From Hepatocystis sp. ex Piliocolobus tephrosceles (taxonomy: Eukaryota; Apicomplexa; Aconoidasida; Haemosporida; Plasmodiidae), in assembly GCA_902459845.2 (NCBI GenBank), contig CABPSV020000291.1:4954-19936 (forward strand): a stretch of DNA of 14,983 nucleotides, given 5' to 3'. Position 1 is the stretch's first letter, and every line of letters begins with the position of its first letter. The position numbers and the translations under genes were made by a program. Of this stretch, positions 1 to 14,983 are shown piece by piece. Under the pieces are notes generated by a model, which did not search any database, was not told the DNA's origin, and saw only the letters and a program-made list of their open reading frames with translations.

Positions 1-1007
1 TCAACATTTGTGTCAATTAGGTCAAGAAAATAAACAAGTGTATCATTATTCTTATTACAACTACTATTTGTATGGATATTCACGTTTTCCCTATCCCTTA
101 ACTTAGGATAAATTGAATTTACATATTTTTTATTCGATTTATTATGCAAATAATATAAAACCAAACCAGATATATAATTGTTATCATTCAGTGTGCTCAT
201 GTCATTATATATAGAAGCATGTAAGTGATCAGGGACAGGAATACTAATAATTGTAGATAAAAATTTTACTATCTCATTTATTTTAGTTTCATTTTTATTT
301 GTTTTCCTTACCCATAAATAATAGATATTTAAAATTTGAGCTGATAAAATAGAAACTTTAATATTAAAACTCCAAATAAGAATCAACAGATGTTCCAATG
401 ATTTGTATTTCGTTTTTCTTAAACAATTGTCTAATAAGAGGTAAGTAAATCTTAGCACTTGCTCAATTAGAAAATCTGATGGGATAAAATCAGGTTCGCT
501 TGTTTGATTTTCTGCTGTATTTTCATTGTCTCCATTTTTTTTACTACTACTGCTGTTGCTGCTCTCGGTGACAGTAACACTAGTAATAGCAGCAGCAAAA
601 GCAGCAGTAGTAGTAGTAGCAGTAGCAGTAGCAGAAGCAGCAGTCGAACTAGTACTGCTTCCACCACTATTACAATTCTTGTCATTTCCTTTTGAGCTAT
701 ACACAGTAGTATATCCCAACAACTCATTGATTTTATTTACGTCTTCCAAATTTGTTACACCGTTCAAATGTATTTTTAATTCATTATGTTCTATATATTT
801 ATAAAGTAAATCGTCAAATCTATTTAACACTGGTGCCCATGCAATCAAATCTGATTTAGGCCATATCCAATCAACAAACGGATATAAATGACCTAACAAA
901 CTATTATTGTCACATGTTGCTAATATATGGATAAAAAATTTTTCCTCCTCCCCAAGTTTGTTCAGCATTAATATAAAATTTTCATCTTTTGGAATTTGAA
1001 TTTTCAT
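1..1007 (-). CDS. HUWE1/Tom1-type HECT E3 ubiquitin ligase, N-terminal fragment (partial)
   Basis: The frame is open from an ATG at 1007 to the window edge (335 codons); the 3' part lies outside the window. An in-frame stop (1029-1031) lies just upstream and the ATG follows an A-run, so the start is well supported. Residues 47-65 (WIWPKSDLIAWAPVLNRFD) and residues 187-234, including KSLEHLLILIWSFNIKVSIL, resemble the two halves of the N-terminal DUF908 armadillo-like region of human HUWE1, where the equivalents are WNIGKCELYHWVDLLDRFD and YSSIEHLTTLLASSDMQV. A Ser/Thr/Ala low-complexity insert (about residues 114-157) separates the halves. Family members are very large scaffolds ending in a C-terminal HECT domain that transfers ubiquitin through a cysteine; that domain is not in this window. 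The family assignment rests on remembered HUWE1 sequence, so it is good but not certain. No intron is seen in this part. Confidence 0.82.
   Translation of the reverse strand, partial: MKIQIPKDENFILMLNKLGEEEKFFIHILATCDNNSLLGHLYPFVDWIWPKSDLIAWAPVLNRFDDLLYKYIEHNELKIHLNGVTNLEDVNKINELLGYTTVYSSKGNDKNCNSGGSSTSSTAASATATATTTTAAFAAAITSVTVTESSNSSSSKKNGDNENTAENQTSEPDFIPSDFLIEQVLRFTYLLLDNCLRKTKYKSLEHLLILIWSFNIKVSILSAQILNIYYLWVRKTNKNETKINEIVKFLSTIISIPVPDHLHASIYNDMSTLNDNNYISGLVLYYLHNKSNKKYVNSIYPKLRDRENVNIHTNSSCNKNNDTLVYFLDLIDTNV
537..668 (-). repeat. Ser/Thr/Ala-coding trinucleotide repeat inside the ligase gene
   Basis: On the plus strand this is a run of GCA, GTA and AGT triplets, markedly richer in G and C than its surroundings. 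On the coding strand it gives alternating Ser, Thr, Ala and Val residues (about 114-157). Length is a multiple of three and the frame stays open on both sides, as expected for an expandable triplet tract inserted into a loop of the folded domain. Confidence 0.75.
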
Positions 1008-2352
1008 TTTTTTTTTTTTTACGATATGTTAAGTGAGTTGTGCATATTCCTGCATATGTACATATATATATATATATATACATACATACACAAAAAATAC
1101 GTATAAACAATGTCAAAAATAAACAGAATTTGATAAAAAAAAAAAAAAAAAAAAAAAAAATGTATTCGCAACTATCGCAAATACTTCACATATATTAAAA
1201 ATTAATGCATATATATATATATATATATATATAACTAAAATTAAGAATATACTATAAAACGTAGTATATAACTTACAATTTATGTAAATATACACATGCA
1301 TACATGTTTAACAATGAAAAGCTATTATGCTAAAATTCTTGTCAAATAAAAATAATTTGAAAATATATAAATTTATTATTCAAGAATAAAAAATTATATA
1401 AGCTACTTTATATCCAAGTGTTTAAAAAGATGCATATAATTTTAATTTACTATTCAATGCAAAAATGTGTTTGTTATGTATATGCATGAATGTATGAGTG
1501 TGGGTATGAATGTGAGTGTATAAGTGTGAGTGTATGAGTGTGAATGTATGTGTATACATGCATATATGTATGTGGTATGTATGTATATGTACATATGTAG
1601 GCATAAAAAGTGATGAGTACACACGTATATCCATATAGTTATACATGCATTATATTTTTATTTTATTACCGAAAAGCAAAATTAAATTCAAATATATACA
1701 TGTACATATATATATATATATACACGTTTGTATATTTAAAAGTATAAATGAAAAAAAAGGTAATGCTTTTGTTTTTAAAAAAAACAGTATTTTCATAAAT
1801 TTGTTTACTTTTTTCCTTACAGGAATGAATGGAACGAAACTTACAATTTTACTATTTTTAATTTAATTTTTTTTTTTTTTTTTTAATTTTGTATAAAAAT
1901 GAGTATAAATAAAAAAAAAAAAATATATATATATATATATGAATATATAAGTTATGATTATGCAAGTATATGGATATGTAAGTATGTAAATATTTAAATA
2001 AATGAATGAATAAATAAATATATAAATAAATAAATAAATATTTAAATAAATAAAGCAATATTTAAATAAATAAATAAATGAATATTTAAATAAATATGTA
2101 AATGCATAAATATATGAACATTTATAGTTTAAAATGTATCCACATAAATATGTGAGTATGAACAAGAAGCTTAACTTTGTTTTGGGGTTTTTTCTTTAAT
2201 GTTTTGGGATTAAAAAAAAAAAAAAAAAAAGTATTTTTACGTTTTGTTTTTAGCATTTTACAAAAAATATTTTTACTTTCAGTTTTTAATAATGTTAATT
2301 TTTATTTTACTTTTTTTTCATTATGTTATGTTATTTTATTATTTAATTAAAC

Positions 2353-4521: not shown

Positions 4522-6516
4522 TCATGATGAAGGGAATAAATGATTATATAATTTCAAATCCGAATTATTTGGAATAAGAAAAAAGTTAAGGGCACAATAA
4601 TTAATTTCATTATTTTTTTCTGTTATAACTAAATGGGAAGCATGTTTAAATATAATCAAATGGCAATTAGTAAAGAATTTACTAGTATTTTTAAATACTT
4701 CAACATTACATATAGTATCTTTTTCCCCACCTAGAATAAGTACAGGTATGTTATGAATACCTACTTCTTTAAATATGTTATGTGCACTCCACATTTTTAA
4801 ATTGTTAATACATCCTAAAAGAGAATGAGTAATATTTTTTTTTACTAAAACTTGCCACATAATTCTATTATAAAAATAATCAGTATTATCTTGTGTAGGG
4901 TCATCATTTTTTTTTTTTTTTTTTGAAATAAAATATGGTACAGCAATAAAAGAAGATAAATTGATTAAACAAGGAAATACTTTTATTATTTTTACTAAAA
5001 ATGGTTTTTTTTCTAACACTCCAACAGGAGATATTAAAAGAATTTTTTTTACTTGATTTATATATTTTTTAGCAAAGCTCGTTGCAATAACACATCCCAT
5101 AGAAAAACCAATTAAATAAAATTGTTTATCCATCAAATTGAGATAAGTTAATAATTCTTCTGTTTGAGAAATAAAAAAATCTAAACAGTAAGTTTTTTTT
5201 TTATGATTATATTTTGGACAAGCAGACAAACCATGCCCATATAAATCAAAATTAAGAACTAAAAATTTATATTTTATTAGCATTTTTTGTATATTAAAAA
5301 ATGTTACATTAGTCCCATTCAAACCATGAAAAGTAATAACTAAAACCCCTTTTTTATTTCCTCTCAAATCATAATTTATAATCCCATATTTACCATAAAA
5401 TACATTTCTATAAACAAATGGGCATTGAATGTTTTTTTTTTTTAAATATTTAGGTACTTTATATATTATAAAATTTTGTTTATTTTGGGAAAATGTTCCA
5501 TACTCAGAATTTGACTTATTGTTCAAGGTGTTAATTGATTGATTAATCTGTTCATTTGTTAAATCATTTGTTGAATTATGAATCATGTTAGTATTTATTT
5601 TAGTAACATCATCAACGGGGAGTTCATTTTTCTCTACATTTTTTTTTTTCTTTCTAAACCTTATTAACTTTTTAAATTTCCATTTTTTTTTCTTTTTACT
5701 TTTTTTTTTATTTTCACATTGTTTATCATTCTTTAAAGATTGTTTATTTTTAACTTGTTCGTCAGACGTTAATAAACAAATATGATTGTTATTATTTTTG
5801 TTTATATGAACAGGTTGATCCGCGTCCTGTAAATTATTAAACATTTCGCTCACTGATTTACATATTATATGATTATTTATCTCATTTTCATTTATTTGTA
5901 TATTTATGTTTCTGACATTTTTTATATCATTAGTATAATTTATATTCTGTTCTGGACTTATTATACTTGTAAATACAGTTTTTATTTTTCTTTCGTCTTG
6001 AATTTTTTTTTTTTTTTTTTTATCTTGTAATGTATTTTCTGCGTTTCTTTCGTCTATGTTTTTTACCTTTTCATTTGGATTTTTTCCTTCTACATTTTTT
6101 CCTTCTACATTTTTTTCTTCTACATTTTTTTCTTCTATATTTTTTTCTTCTATATTTTTTTCTTCTATACTACTTTCGTTTTTTGTCTCTTCTTTTTTCT
6201 TTGTTGTTACCGTTTTGTGGCTATTTATTTTAGTCACTTTCACCAAGCTGGGTGAACAAAATGAGCTGTTTGTTGTTGTTTCAATTAACACGTTATTATC
6301 ACCCAAATCAACTTTATTATTTATATTATTTTTTACATTCCCCTTACTGGTTGATGATGTTAAATATTTTTTACTATTTTGTGGAATGTCTTCAATTTCT
6401 GTTAATTCCTCAGTTTGATTTTTATTGAGTTTTTTTGTAAGCTCGCCTGGTCGCTCACATTCGGTTCTTTCCTCGACTTTCTGTTCTCCCACTTGTTTTC
6501 CCTGTTCATTGTTCAT
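4522..6516 (-). CDS. Alpha/beta hydrolase (monoacylglycerol lipase/lysophospholipase-like), long disordered N-terminus
   Basis: This is a single-exon 664-residue protein. A stop codon sits two codons upstream of the ATG, so the start is firm unless there is an upstream exon. Residues 1-350 are low complexity: Asn/Lys/Glu-rich, with a pentapeptide repeat (121-145) and a polybasic stretch (269-292). Residues about 366-650 form an alpha/beta hydrolase fold: a strand ending in the oxyanion-type motif HGLNG (397-401), the nucleophile elbow GFSMG (470-474, Ser472), the acid in GGEKD (Asp600) and the base in ASHLV (His628). All three triad residues are present, so it should be an active serine hydrolase. 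A short KKKKK insert (532-536) falls in the cap region. The fold suits monoglyceride lipases, lysophospholipases and esterases; the substrate cannot be read from sequence. No signal peptide or membrane segment is seen. The divergent neighbour is the ASH2-like gene. Confidence 0.93.
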   Translation of the reverse strand: MNNEQGKQVGEQKVEERTECERPGELTKKLNKNQTEELTEIEDIPQNSKKYLTSSTSKGNVKNNINNKVDLGDNNVLIETTTNSSFCSPSLVKVTKINSHKTVTTKKKEETKNESSIEEKNIEEKNIEEKNVEEKNVEGKNVEGKNPNEKVKNIDERNAENTLQDKKKKKKIQDERKIKTVFTSIISPEQNINYTNDIKNVRNINIQINENEINNHIICKSVSEMFNNLQDADQPVHINKNNNNHICLLTSDEQVKNKQSLKNDKQCENKKKSKKKKKWKFKKLIRFRKKKKNVEKNELPVDDVTKINTNMIHNSTNDLTNEQINQSINTLNNKSNSEYGTFSQNKQNFIIYKVPKYLKKKNIQCPFVYRNVFYGKYGIINYDLRGNKKGVLVITFHGLNGTNVTFFNIQKMLIKYKFLVLNFDLYGHGLSACPKYNHKKKTYCLDFFISQTEELLTYLNLMDKQFYLIGFSMGCVIATSFAKKYINQVKKILLISPVGVLEKKPFLVKIIKVFPCLINLSSFIAVPYFISKKKKKNDDPTQDNTDYFYNRIMWQVLVKKNITHSLLGCINNLKMWSAHNIFKEVGIHNIPVLILGGEKDTICNVEVFKNTSKFFTNCHLIIFKHASHLVITEKNNEINYCALNFFLIPNNSDLKLYNHLFPSS
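6082..6156 (-). repeat. Five-copy 15-bp coding repeat (pentapeptide N-I/V-E-E/G-K)
   Basis: Five in-frame copies encode NIEEK, NIEEK, NVEEK, NVEGK and NVEGK (residues 121-145 of the hydrolase), flanked by decayed copies (IEEK before, NPNEK after). The left-to-right drift from EEK to EGK suggests unequal expansion. It lies in the disordered N-terminal half and should be length-variable between isolates. Confidence 0.85.
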
Positions 6517-6695
6517 TGTTTAATTTCTCTTTTTATCACAATGCAAAATATGACCGCTTTCTTTATGATGATATAATTTGTTGTTATGTTTAATTTTTTT
6601 TTTTCAATTAACTTATAGCAATACTTGCTTTTTGTATTTTCTTTCATTAAATTTGTCTTACTTTTTTTCTTCCTTCACTGCTTTCAATAGCTCAT

Positions 6696-8442: not shown

Positions 8443-10266
8443 ATGCAACACTATATTATACCATTCTATATCATATCATGCCATGTCATAACATATCGTA
8501 CAACAGAAGAAATTAGACAATTAGAAAAAATTCAGCATTATAAAAAAAAAAAAAATTCGTTAAATAAAATAAATACAAAACAAAAAAAAAAAAAGCAAAA
8601 AAAAACAAAAAAAAAAAACTGCTTTATAAGGAAATTCATATATAAACAACATTTTAAAACGAATACTACTAAATCAGTAAATAATAATGTAAATAATTAT
8701 ACAGAAATAGAAGAAATAAGCAATTTTTTGTAATATTACAAAAAATATAAGTGCTTCTTTTCTTTTTATTATTTCTCTGTCAACTCCCTTTTTACTTCTC
8801 TCATCTTTTGGTCTTCTATCTTCATTGCCTCTTTCTTTTACTCCCTTTCTTTTACTGTACCTTTTTTTTTTATTGTACCTATCTTTTACTGTACCTTTTT
8901 TTTTTTTTACTGTACCTTTTTTTTTACTGTTTATCTTTTTTTTTCTTTTTATTTTTTTACTGCCATGCTTCTTCCTAACAGTAGTGACGAAAAAAAAGAT
9001 GAAACACTATCGTCAGAAAACAAAAACGAAGTAAACATAGCCACTGAAAAATATATGGATAAAGAATGTAACTTAGAACCAGTTGATTTACTTAATAACA
9101 ATAATAAAAAAAGAAAAGTAGTAATGTTCCAAGAGCAGAAAACAGTGAAAGTATTTGAAGTAGATAGATGTAGAAGAATTAGTCCTAAGAAAGTCCGTGT
9201 ACCTAACAAATTGCTCAATATTTGTAGTTATACAAATGAACAAAAACAAAAAGAAGGAGAGGAAAAAAATAATTATCCTAATAATAATAATATTAATAAT
9301 AATGGAAGTAACAATGTATTTAATAAAACGCCATTAGATAATCTAAAAGATGGAACATATATGATCGAAAATGAACCATCACAAAATCATAATAAATCAC
9401 ATAAGAGGGATAAACCAAATAAACATAGGAAATTAAATAAACGTGATGAAATAAATAAAAAAAAAGGAATAGAAAAAAAGGAAGGTATAGATAAAAAGGA
9501 GAATATGTTTATTGATGAAAATAAGAATAAAAACAATTTTTTTGATTATGAAAAATATCGAAATAATAATAATAATGTGACATTTTCAACGAAATATAAA
9601 GATAGTTGTATTACTTTGAGCCCTGACAAACTTACTTGTTATGGTGATAAAGGTTGGTCGAGTGTTTTTGTAAATAGTGGTGCTGATATTGGTAAATGGT
9701 ATTTTGAAGTAAAATTCGAAGGCCCTATAAATAAATTACAATTTGTAGGGTATAAAGAAAATTCTATAGAAATAAAACCACACATAAGAGTTGGATTTGC
9801 TTGTAGATATATGAGATATGATACCCCAATAGGAACAGATAAATACAGTTTTTGTGTTAATAGTAAAAATGGAAATATGTTTAATAAAGCTAAAGGTTAT
9901 GCTTGTATGGAACCATTTAAAATTAATGATGTAATAGGTTGTTACTTATATTTAAAAAATAAAAATACTTATAACTTTGATCCAAGATTAGATAATAAAT
10001 TATATGAATTTATACAAGGTGGTATTTTATGTGATCCTCAAAACCCACCACAATTAAAGAAAAATCAAGGATCTTATATTTTTTTTTCATTGAATGGACT
10101 AATAAAACGTAATGCTTTTTATAGTGTATATGAAGGATTTTACCACCCTGCTGTTAGTTTATATATGGGTGCTAGTGCCAGAATAAACTTAGGACCACAT
10201 TTTAAATATAGACATATAAACGGTTTTATTCCTTGCATATATATGCAGTTACCAGTTGTTTTGTAA
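8443..10266 (+). CDS. ASH2: ASH2-like SPRY protein (COMPASS/SET1 complex subunit), proposed two or more exons
   Basis: The main exon runs to 10266. Its C-terminal 225 residues match the Ash2L SPRY domain: PIGTDKYSF (cf. PLGYDKFSY in human ASH2L), then a region ending FYHPAVSLY and INLGPHFKY (cf. YFPAISLY and INFGPCFKY). ASH2 pairs with RbBP5, WDR5 and DPY30 to activate SET1-type H3K4 methyltransferases in the nucleus. The final residues (GFIPCIYMQLPVVL) lie where ASH2L carries its DPY30-binding helix. Upstream are Asn/Lys-rich tracts and a basic RVxF-like segment. A one-exon reading would start at 8965 (433 aa). I prefer exon 8443-8729 joined to 8982-10266 (523 aa), because the 8965 ATG lies inside a textbook acceptor and the phases match. 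The first exon's own start is unsettled: 8443 is the first ATG in frame, but an upstream exon spliced at 8507 or 8536 is possible. The N-terminal PHD/winged-helix part of animal ASH2L is not seen. Confidence 0.85.
8730..8981 (+). other. Proposed intron in the ASH2-like gene
   Basis: The donor GTAATA (8730) follows the Glu/Lys/Asn-rich frame. About 230 bases of pyrimidine-rich DNA follow, ending TTCTTCCTAACAG at 8981. Exon one leaves two bases of a codon and exon two supplies the third, so the frame is kept (TT plus T, Phe). The tract has imperfect TACTGTACC-plus-T-run repeats (about 8833-8940). The 252-bp length is usual for Plasmodium. Not proven without transcript data. Confidence 0.65.
8833..8940. 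repeat. Imperfect TACTGTACC(T)n repeats
   Basis: Four or five imperfect units of TTTACTGTACC followed by runs of T lie inside the proposed ASH2 intron and make up most of its polypyrimidine tract. Confidence 0.7.
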
Positions 10267-10945: not shown

Positions 10946-11169
10946 CTAATGTTGACAGGGGTTAGAGTAAGAAAAGAGAAAATTAGTTGTTTGGAAAATT
11001 GTATAGTGTAAAATAACATATATAAACTGTAAAAAGTTAAAAAATGGCCAGTATTCATTGATAAAATAAATTTCGGTAAACTCTGAAATCTATCAAAAAA
11101 AAAAAAAAAAAAAAAAAATTGAGGTGGACGCATTTTGTTTATGTGCCATAATCGTAGGTACCTGCATGT

Positions 11170-11205
<36 letters not shown>

Positions 11206-13226
11206 CACGCTTTTATCAACATCTTTATGAAATTCGCACTTATTTTATTTTTTTTTTTTTGAACTTTACTTGATATAACATAAAATCCGATAATCTATGT
11301 TCGCCAGACGTTCGTATGAGAATGTTAGGCGGGGGTAGCTTGGAAGTAAGTAACTTGTCATGGTAATTAATTCTGCATCAAATAAATAAGTAGGTAAATC
11401 AATAGACAGGTAAATAAAAAAACAGGTAAATAAAAAAACAGGTAAATAAAAAAACAGGTAAATAAATAGAGCTAACCAAAAGTAGTAAGTTTGACGTAAA
11501 AAAAAAAAAAAAAAATCACACATACAAATGTAACACCTATCCATGTTTAATAAACTTGTGAAATGCTATTTTTCTTATTTTACATTTTTAATTTCTCAGG
11601 GTCATCTAAATAAAAGTATTTGCCACAATAGCATTTCATTTGAATATTGTTCTTAAATTTTTTTTTTTCATTTATTATTATTTTTTTTGAAGACTCGTTG
11701 TCGTTTTGGTTTTTTTCTATAGGAGATGAAGAATAATTAATGTTACGTTCTTGTAACAATTCCTTGCATGTGTCATAATATAAGTTGGGATTAAATTCGC
11801 ACAAGCTCATTTCATTTTTACTAGTGTACGAAAAAAATATGTTCAAAGTTAAGCTATAAAGTGGAACAAAAAAAAAAAATAAAAAAAAATATATTTATAA
11901 TACAACACTTATTTTTATATAAAAAAAAAAAAAAAATATATATATGTATATATATATATATATATATTAATAAAAACGACAAATGTGTTCTTATTATGTC
12001 TTACTTGTCAAAGCCCTTTGTTCTTTCTTCTATATTATATATAATTTTCCTATAATTTTCGTTAACATATGACAAATTACCAATTATTTTAATACGTATT
12101 TTATTTTCTTTTACAAAATTGCTAAAAAAAAAAAAAAAAAAAAAAAAAAGCCCATTATATTACATTTTTTTGTATAGATATATATAAAAAAAAAATATGT
12201 TATCATTGGATTTATATAACTGCTTTTGTATATGTATATAATTATACATATGCAATTTGATACATACATATGGTTGTATACGTATATGTACATATTTGTA
12301 ATTATAAAAAATAAAATATATCATTTTATCTTACAAAAAAAAATTTTCATTTATTAGAACTAAAATATTTAAGTAAAATAAAAAATGTATTTCCTCAGGG
12401 CTTCTATTATAATTTAACAAAGAGAGTGAAAATACTGATAAAATCTTTATGTTTAATCTAATACATATTTCTATAATCTACTAGCAGAATTAATAAAATA
12501 TGTCAAAAAAAATTTTTATTGAATAAGTATTTTTTTTTTATTAGTTCATAAGATATGTAATATTGTTGGGTGGAATATATAAGCACTGATATACGATATA
12601 TATATAGGACTATACACACACACCTATATATATATAGATCTATGTAAGTATGTTATATGTGTATAATAACTTGAATTAATGTTTTGGATCCCATATAATG
12701 ACCTAGAGACAAATGGATTCCTTTTTCTTTTGCATATCTTCTATTTCCATCCATAATAATAGCTTAACAATGTTAATGATGTAAACAGACAAAAAGAGAG
12801 AAAAATGCATTAATAAAAGTTAATACATATATGTATGTATGTGTGTATGTATGTATGTGTGTATGTATGTATGTGTGTATGTATGTATGTATGTATGTGT
12901 GTATGTATGTATGTATGTGTGTATGTATGTATGTATGTATGTGTGTATGTATGTATGTGCTTGGGTGTATATACATATAAATTTAGTCCTAAATAATTTT
13001 TTTTTTTTTTTTTTTTTTTCTCTTTTTTTACATATATGCTTAATGTTAATGTGTCCCCGTATAAGTGAAGTTACAATTCTTTCAATTCTAAAAATAAAAA
13101 AAATGTTTTATACATACATCATTTTTTTTTAAACAATTTACATATTTTAATTACAACATTATAACATTCTTAAATTTTTATTTATTTTTTTGAACTTATT
13201 TTTTTGTATAACATATTTAGAGCCAT
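10946..13226 (-). CDS. CPT: cis-Prenyltransferase (dehydrodolichyl/undecaprenyl diphosphate synthase family), eight exons
   Basis: It condenses isopentenyl diphosphate onto a short allylic diphosphate with cis geometry, giving the dolichol backbone used for N-glycans and GPI anchors, normally at the ER. Proposed minus-strand exons: 13226-13213, 13087-13032, 12762-12671, 12477-12335, 12121-12005, 11853-11584, 11372-11270, 11089-10946. They total 939 bases (312 aa plus stop), and every junction keeps frame. Motifs in family order: IIMDGNRRYAK (25-35, catalytic Asp28), LGHYMGSKTL (43-52), SLLNYNRSPEEI (73-84), KIRIKIIGNLS (109-119), LNIFFSYTSKNE (144-155), ILIRTSGEHRLSDF (248-261), FTEIYF (269-274; Glu271 matches the Mg-binding Glu213 of the E. 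coli enzyme) and YWPFF. Low-complexity residues (about 165-220) lengthen the loop before the RTSGE motif. Exons 2-8 are secure in outline. The 14-base first exon is the weakest; its ATG follows an A-run and gives a normal-length N-terminus. Confidence 0.9.
11407..11468. repeat. 16-bp tandem repeat in cis-prenyltransferase intron 6
   Basis: Four copies of CAGGTAAATAAAAAAA at exactly 16-base spacing lie in the intron 11583-11373, about 35 bases upstream of its acceptor. On the gene's strand they read TTTTTTTATTTACCTG, adding to the pyrimidine-rich tract. Confidence 0.88.
12829..12958. repeat. GTAT/GTGT tetranucleotide microsatellite in cis-prenyltransferase intron 2
   Basis: About 130 bases of GTAT units with interspersed GTGT variants lie in the intron 13031-12763. 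The strand-symmetric Tyr/His/Thr and Val/Cys/Met frames across it are artefacts of the repeat. Confidence 0.92.
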
Positions 13227-13651: not shown

Positions 13652-13785
13652 CTAAATTATATAACAGAAAGTATATTATAATAACAATAGTATAAAAAAA
13701 CAAATTTTTTTTTTTAATGTGAAAAACATTTTTCATATATTTTTATAAATTCAGTATGTAAAAATAATTAAGAAAAAACAAAAAA

Positions 13786-13979
13786 GAAAGCGAAAAAAGT
13801 AAGAGAAAAAAGAAAGCGAAAAAAGAAAGCGAAAAAAGAAAGCGAAAAAAGAAAGCGAAAAAAGAAAGCGAAAAAAGAAAGCGAAAAAAGAAAGCGAAAA
13901 AAGTAAGCGAAAAAAGTAAGCGAAAAAATTAAGCGAAAAAATTAAGCGAAAAAAGTAAGCGAAAAAAGTAAGCGAAAAA
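13786..13979. repeat. 13-bp minisatellite GAAAGCGAAAAAA, about 15 copies
   Basis: About fifteen units at 13-base spacing. Eight read GAAAGCG plus A-run, four GTAAGCG, two TTAAGCG and one GTAAGAG. Variants are clustered: GAAAGCG on the left, GTAAGCG and TTAAGCG on the right, showing local duplication. It lies about 560 bases upstream of the proposed cis-prenyltransferase start. All frames through it are low complexity, so it does not look like coding DNA. Confidence 0.92.
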
Positions 13980-14813: not shown

Positions 14814-14876
14814 ATTACAAAAATGTAACTGTAAAAACATTTCGTTTGAAATTGATAGTTTTTTATTATTTATGTT

Positions 14877-14983
14877 TGCTTTATTTTGGCTTTATTTTGG
14901 CTTTTATTTTGGTTTTATTTTTGCTTTTATTTTTGCTTTTATTTTGGCTTTATTTTGGCTTTATTTTGGCTTTATTTTGGCTT
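14877..14983. repeat. GGCTTTATTTT minisatellite, cut by the window edge
   Basis: Units of 11-13 bases (GGCTTTATTTT with GGTTTTATTTT and TGCTTTTATTTT variants) repeat about nine times and run off the right end. Copies at both ends are GGCTTTATTTT, with the variants in the middle. Confidence 0.88.

What the first reader, a model, noticed from the sequence alone, without database searches (positions are those of the whole stretch)
10946..13226. A complete cis-prenyltransferase hidden in eight short exons
No single open frame here exceeds about 90 codons, yet motif hunting on the minus strand recovers every landmark of the family in the right order: MDGNRRYAK, GHYMGS, NYNRSPEE, IRIKIIGNLS, NIFFSYTS, ILIRTSGEHRLSDF and the YF..YWP segment. 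Splice sites fit between all of them, and the seven intron phases (2,1,0,2,2,2,0) all preserve frame. A simple ORF-based annotation would miss this essential lipid-carrier enzyme or call fragments of it.
Basis: partly seen in the sequence, partly recalled or inferred. Interest (0 to 1): 0.8.

Follow-up and report, generated by a model that had tools for sequence, protein, structure and literature searches.

The report
Monkey parasite's eight-exon dolichol-lipid enzyme
This stretch of what is likely a malaria-like monkey parasite's genome holds eight predicted exons that join into a complete version of a known malaria enzyme, which likely builds the lipid carrier used to attach sugars to proteins; the public database copy of this protein stops before the last exon.

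Summary
The finding holds up. The product is a cis-prenyltransferase (Pfam PF01255, 173 bits, cut-off 27) and aligns end to end with nine annotated Plasmodium orthologs (68-76% identity). Exons 2-8 are each found without any splicing assumption. It is therefore the ortholog of the characterised PfCPT (PF3D7_0826400), not a new kind of thing. The source is most likely Hepatocystis from red colobus blood: a UniRef entry filed under the monkey is identical over exons 1-7, then reads into intron 7 and lacks exon 8. Five apicomplexan entries break at this point. The protein lacks the C-terminal RXG motif, which fits the DHDDS (two-subunit) type, but no partner was found and my search was too insensitive to find one. 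Haemosporidian copies share a lineage-specific C-x-C in the insert and C-x-H at the C-terminus, a possible metal site. Exon 1 (14 nt) is the weakest part.

The parts
13213..13226 (-). exon 1 (14 nt, MALN + 2 nt); donor gttata; weakest part of the model
   Evidence: best of 18 open candidates, itself included, by 7.4 bits; the N-terminus M-x-LN occurs in 9 of 9 full-length Plasmodium orthologs
13032..13087 (-). exon 2 (IERIVTSLIRGHINIKHI), aligns with the N-terminal region of human DHDDS
   Evidence: 13.4 bits, E 0.001
12671..12762 (-). exon 3: MDGNRRYAK and GHYMGS motifs
   Evidence: 55.4 bits; also hit by PF01255 in the unspliced genome
12335..12477 (-). exon 4: VFSLSLLNYNRSPEE
   Evidence: 82.8 bits
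12005..12121 (-). exon 5: IRIKIIGNLS
   Evidence: 61.3 bits
11584..11853 (-). exon 6: NIFFSYTS, then the variable insert seen only in the haemosporidian rows of the alignment
   Evidence: (90.0 bits)
11625..11633 (-). C-x-C (C215, C217), the only invariant columns between L173 and I231 in the 17-row alignment
11270..11372 (-). exon 7: PPPNILIRTSGEHRLSDFMLYQ
   Evidence: (64.0 bits); same intron boundaries and phases as P. falciparum
11240..11269 (-). start of intron 7, read as VKFKKKKIK-stop in the deposited protein UniRef A0A8C9LLI4 (P0001)
   Evidence: sequence; protein
10946..11089 (-). exon 8: ISEFTEIYFINEYWP, last helix, tail and stop codon
   Evidence: (87.8 bits)
10949..10957 (-). C-terminal C-x-H (C310, H312); no RXG motif here
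8734..10266 (+). convergent SPRY-domain ORF, the same 3' neighbour as PfCPT
   Evidence: Pfam PF00622 7.1e-10; P. falciparum right homology arm encodes its C-terminus

Best explanation
The eight segments are likely the exons of one single-copy gene, the likely Hepatocystis ortholog of the Plasmodium cis-prenyltransferase PfCPT (PF3D7_0826400), whose 312-aa product is predicted to extend farnesyl or geranylgeranyl diphosphate with isopentenyl diphosphate into the long polyprenyl diphosphate that becomes dolichol. Shown here: the frames, motifs, junction fit, orthology, two shared intron positions and a shared neighbour. Inferred: splicing in the living parasite, enzyme activity, and ER location (the last two from P. 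falciparum work). Because the protein aligns with the N-terminus of human DHDDS and lacks the C-terminal RXG motif, it probably acts as the catalytic subunit of a two-subunit enzyme whose partner (an NgBR/NUS1-like protein) has not been identified here.
For: PF01255 8.4e-51 over residues 26-295. Solved relatives: 8kga 1.7e-29, bacterial UPPS 1f75 3.3e-29, human DHDDS 7.6e-28. Among the eight chains the DHDDS alignments begin at residue 3 and the other six at residue 19 or 20. Nine Plasmodium orthologs align over the full length. Exons 2-8 are found independently. 9 of 9 orthologs are gap-free across each junction. P. falciparum introns 6 and 7 lie at the same residues with phases 2 and 0, its recoded C-terminus reads KWIFSYSNPCPH, and the neighbouring SPRY gene is shared. 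P. falciparum CPT finds six matches in this 12.39-Mb assembly, all at this locus. An AlphaFold model of the P. falciparum ortholog (mean pLDDT 74.9) has human DHDDS as best Foldseek match (6z1n, E 2.8e-17). PfCPT knockdown cuts polyprenols and dolichols in vivo (PMC7414040 section 9).
Against: No RNA-seq was available. Exon 1 adds only 11 bits (559.2 against 548.2) and the next candidate is 7.4 bits behind; the ortholog N-termini are themselves annotations. Introns 1 and 3 have weak-looking donors (gttata, gttatt). No partner subunit was found, but the control failed: a human DHDDS query did not find even this CPT locus, so the NgBR searches say nothing. Bacterial UPPS structures follow DHDDS closely in the Foldseek list, and bacterial-type chains score as well as DHDDS by sequence.
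Confidence: 0.95

Rival explanations
1. The functional product is the truncated 274-aa form, made by retaining intron 7, as deposited for the monkey genome.
For: P0001 (identical over 265 residues) ends in the intron-7 read-through; P0015 (P. brasilianum) and P0016 (P. ovale curtisi) also diverge after MLYQ, and P0241 (T. annulata) ends LIYQVI.
Against: Exon 8 is strongly conserved (87.8 bits alone) and the full model gains 107 bits over the form without it (559.2 against 451.7). It carries columns invariant in a 32-row alignment (F, W, P). In P. falciparum the C-terminal tag construct carries the exon-8 end of the protein. The entries look like gene-prediction failures.
Confidence: 0.04
2. 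The locus is a decayed pseudogene kept recognisable by recent loss.
For: Many short frames; intron 2 holds a long (TATG)n repeat and homopolymers abound.
Against: All seven introns have GT-AG ends and keep frame, and the joined frame has no internal stop; the 23 columns invariant are all intact in the window protein.
Confidence: 0.02
3. The enzyme works alone as a homodimer, with the haemosporidian tail (FSYSNPC-x-H) taking the place of the RXG motif.
For: Tail C-x-H and insert C-x-C occur together in 13 of 216 homologs, all of haemosporidian type. The glutamate before the WP motif that aligns with bacterial 1f75 is kept (E271), whereas human DHDDS has a gap there. M. mazei MM_0014 lacks RXG and crystallised as a homodimer (PMC8131916, passages).
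Against: None of the apicomplexan homologs examined has RXG at the end, nor do nine named fungal, insect and ciliate relatives on the no-RXG list, so its loss is not special to this tail. No coordinates were available to test contact between tail and active site.
Confidence: 0.25

Closest known systems
PfCPT, PF3D7_0826400 (Plasmodium falciparum cis-prenyltransferase)
   Same: 71% identity over the whole length (P0005), introns 6 and 7 at the same places and phases, same convergent SPRY neighbour, same C-terminal FSYSNPC-x-H
   Different: Insert sequence and protein length differ (317 against 312 aa); intron 6 and 7 lengths differ (138 and 147 against 211 and 180 nt)
Human DHDDS (catalytic subunit of the DHDDS-NgBR complex)
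   Same: PF01255-type core, N-terminal region, best structural match; that DHDDS itself lacks RXG is recalled
   Different: The haemosporidian protein has a variable insert before RTSG and ends shortly after the last helix; its partner is unknown
Bacterial undecaprenyl diphosphate synthase (UPPS)
   Same: DGN-R, RTSGE-RLS and WP motifs, fold
   Different: Homodimer-type enzymes carry the C-terminal RXG motif (PMC8131916, passages), absent here
UniRef A0A8C9LLI4, filed under Piliocolobus tephrosceles
   Same: Identical over its first 265 residues, exons 1-7
   Different: Lacks exon 8; ends in intron 7; the species label is most likely the host's, not the parasite's

Membership tests
cis-prenyltransferase family (Pfam PF01255) | profile match over the curated cut-off | tested here: met
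   173 bits, cut-off 27; TIGR00055 uppS 176.2 bits, cut-off 109.55
cis-prenyltransferase family (Pfam PF01255) | conserved motif residues (DGN-R, GH, S/N/R, RTSG..R.S.F..Q, F and WP) | tested here: met
   the 23 columns invariant in a 32-row alignment are all present in the window protein
PfCPT orthologs | full-length alignment, shared intron positions, shared neighbour | tested here: met
   intron positions could be tested at DNA level for introns 6 and 7 only
homodimeric UPPS-type CPT | C-terminal RXG motif | tested here: not met
   absent from the window protein (sequence); among 117 of 120 listed homologs that could be scored 86 have it and 31 lack it
DHDDS-type catalytic subunit | no RXG, DHDDS-like N-terminus and fold | tested here: met
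   that lack of RXG marks this type is partly recalled
DHDDS-type catalytic subunit | works with an NgBR/NUS1 partner | tested here: inconclusive
   searches negative, but the positive control also failed and the assembly held is 12.39 Mb against 19.95 Mb reported for Hepatocystis
active enzyme | synthesis of polyprenyl diphosphate | not testable with these tools
   supported for PfCPT by knockdown (PMC7414040 section 9)

The most novel reading that the evidence does not exclude
Haemosporidian cis-prenyltransferases carry a lineage-specific metal clamp: the C-x-C of the variable insert and the C-x-H of the C-terminal tail bind one zinc ion, and this fixed tail does the job that the RXG motif (or NgBR) does in other organisms, making the malaria-parasite enzyme structurally distinct from the human one.
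Probability: 0.12. Interest if true: 0.6.

Novelty: new member of a known kind. Interest (0 to 1): 0.28.

Why it matters
It gives a complete, cross-checked model for a dolichol-pathway enzyme in what is most likely Hepatocystis, and shows that several public entries for this gene, here and in other apicomplexans, end or go astray at one and the same place. Anyone using those entries for phylogeny, structure prediction or drug-target comparison would work with a protein lacking conserved C-terminal residues. The missing RXG motif, the unknown partner and the paired Cys/His motifs are testable differences from the host enzyme.

Tried and rejected
NgBR/NUS1 partner in the same assembly: human NUS1 residues 73-293, the yeast Nus1 C-terminus and a DNA pattern for W-x-[IL]-R-x-[TS]-E (2 matches against 6 with the reversed control pattern; neither reads as an NgBR tail). 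Nothing found, but the control with human DHDDS found nothing either, so nothing follows. PF01255 at E <= 10 gave only this locus. A protein search with human NUS1 gave 503 proteins; the 120 listed bear vertebrate names, no name, or a name cut off before the species, so an apicomplexan relative further down would not have been seen.

Metal-site idea: I found no coordinates of the model in the Python box, so Cys/His distances could not be measured; the model's residues 179-212 are below pLDDT 50 and its tail is near 60. It stays a lead.

Rejected: pseudogene, chance assembly of motifs, and intron-7 retention as the main form (reasons under the rivals). The Rfam search of the window at gathering scores and the tRNA search found nothing.

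Full report
Observation. Minus-strand stop-to-stop frames up to 108 codons overlap the locus, so 'about 90 codons' holds for exons, not for frames.

Chance. I built a profile from nine full-length named Plasmodium orthologs (9 of the 16 haemosporidian-type hits; the window and P0001 left out) and searched the 591 stop-to-stop fragments of at least 15 aa of the window. Seven fragments reached E <= 1e-3: exons 6, 8, 4, 7, 5, 3 and 2, with 90.0, 87.8, 82.8, 64.0, 61.3, 55.4 and 13.4 bits; six others had E 0.064-0.9. The best of 66,706 fragments of 100 shuffled windows had 11.4 bits. At each junction I tried all in-frame open GT-AG choices within 60 nt. Nine of nine orthologs are gap-free over eight residues at each junction.

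Identity. Pfam PF01255 matches residues 26-295 with 173 bits. The protein search gave 5651 relatives at E <= 0.001, of which 120 were listed. The best 16 are haemosporidian by name or, for P0001 and the nameless P0011-P0014, by sequence; the nine full-length named Plasmodium proteins have 68-76% identity. The insert between the SYTS and RTSG motifs is the most variable part.

Known biology. P. falciparum CPT is PF3D7_0826400. Zimbres et al. 2020 (PMC7414040; abstract, passages and section 9 read) report that its knockdown strikingly reduces polyprenols 15-18 and dolichols 15-19, without a lethal phenotype, and show the tagged protein co-stained with the ER marker BiP. A 2024 preprint (PMC11343144, passages only) prints the DNA arms used to tag the gene. 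From these: intron 6 interrupts the codon after residue 235 in phase 2, intron 7 follows MLYQ in phase 0, as in the window; the recoded end reads KWIFSYSNPCPH; and the other arm encodes, on the opposite strand, GASAKINLGP, matching GASARINLGP near the end of the window's SPRY ORF at 8734-10266. Introns 1-5 could not be compared at the DNA level.

Source. The best hit, P0001, is a UniRef entry filed under the red colobus Piliocolobus tephrosceles. It is identical to the spliced product over its first 265 residues, exons 1-7, and ends VKFKKKKIK, the exact translation of the first bases of intron 7 (sequence). Aunin et al. 2020 (PMC7425995; section 6 and passages) report that the red colobus assembly ASM277652v1 contains Hepatocystis scaffolds (26.26 Mb) and that their own Hepatocystis assembly is 19.95 Mb with 22.05% GC. 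The window's GC is 18-25% per kilobase, 29% in the first. I infer that the window is Hepatocystis sp. ex P. tephrosceles; the assembly held here is 12.39 Mb in 611 contigs, which equals neither figure.

Annotation pattern. Of 216 relatives could be scored for the RTSG-xx-RLSDF-type motif (14 dropped for lack of it). Six lack the WP segment after it; five of the six are apicomplexan or of apicomplexan type (P0001, P0015, P0016, P0241 Theileria annulata, P0242 Theileria equi), and these five diverge right after [LM][IL]YQ; the sixth, P0310, is fungal. This fits an intron shared by Plasmodium and Theileria that gene prediction misses; it was not tested on Theileria DNA.

Type of enzyme. Of 120 listed relatives, 117 could be scored for the C-terminal RXG motif: 86 have it and 31, including the 13 haemosporidian-type and 2 Theileria proteins scored, lack it (only 12 of the 86 were printed). 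The other apicomplexans show no RXG at the end either, though some of these entries look truncated before that point. The human DHDDS alignment covers the N-terminal region, and DHDDS is the best structural match to a model of the P. falciparum ortholog. In the human complex the RXG motif of NgBR reaches into the DHDDS active site (PMC7573591, passages). I therefore expect a two-subunit enzyme. I found no partner, but the search was blind. Paper searches: NgBR with cis-prenyltransferase and Apicomplexa gave 0 papers, Nogo-B receptor with Plasmodium falciparum 2, and a looser search with Nus1 gave 8, three of which hold the word Nus1. I saw those three as listings only, and of the other five read only passages of one (PMC11414934).

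Paired motifs. In the 17-row alignment C215 and C217 are invariant in 17 of 17 rows and are the only invariant columns between L173 and I231. C310 and H312 are present in 14 of 14 rows that reach that point in frame (the window row and P0001 are the same protein over exons 1-7). Among the 216 relatives, tail C-x-H occurs in 13, and all 13 are of haemosporidian type and also hold C-x-C. C-x-C within 60 residues before RTSG occurs in 17 of the 211 with a literal RTSG (16 haemosporidian-type and P0270); the 5 without it hold no C-x-C at all. The Theileria, Babesia, Cardiosporidium, Cryptosporidium and Paramecium proteins printed lack the pair. Four Cys/His positions in a variable insert and a terminal tail suggest a zinc site. 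A search for cis-prenyltransferase, Plasmodium, zinc and cysteine listed one review, not read. This is inference and the boldest part of the report.

Verdict. A real, complete and correctly read gene model; a new member of a known kind, with an instructive annotation error and a testable lineage-specific feature.

Noticed in passing
window 4522-6519 (-): 665-codon open frame with an alpha/beta-hydrolase domain (PF12146 7.2e-16) and an EKN(I/V)E-type repeat in its N-terminal part (tandem repeat 6068-6194).
   Followed up: partly
window 3-1028 (-): Open-ended frame matching DUF908 (PF06012 8.7e-11), a domain that I recall from HUWE1/UPL-type E3 ubiquitin ligases.
   Followed up: no
window 12830-12958: (TATG)n microsatellite, 32 copies, inside predicted intron 2 of the CPT gene.
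   Followed up: no
window 13780-13979 and 14869-14983: 13-bp (15.4 copies, 96% matches) and 11-bp (10.2 copies) tandem arrays in the region upstream of the CPT gene.
   Followed up: no
proteins P0001, P0015, P0016, P0241, P0242: Five deposited CPT entries break at the same residue (after YQ), where PfCPT has intron 7.
   Followed up: yes
protein P0008: P. yoelii 17X entry is named 'variant 10', which suggests that many splice variants of this gene have been annotated.
   Followed up: no
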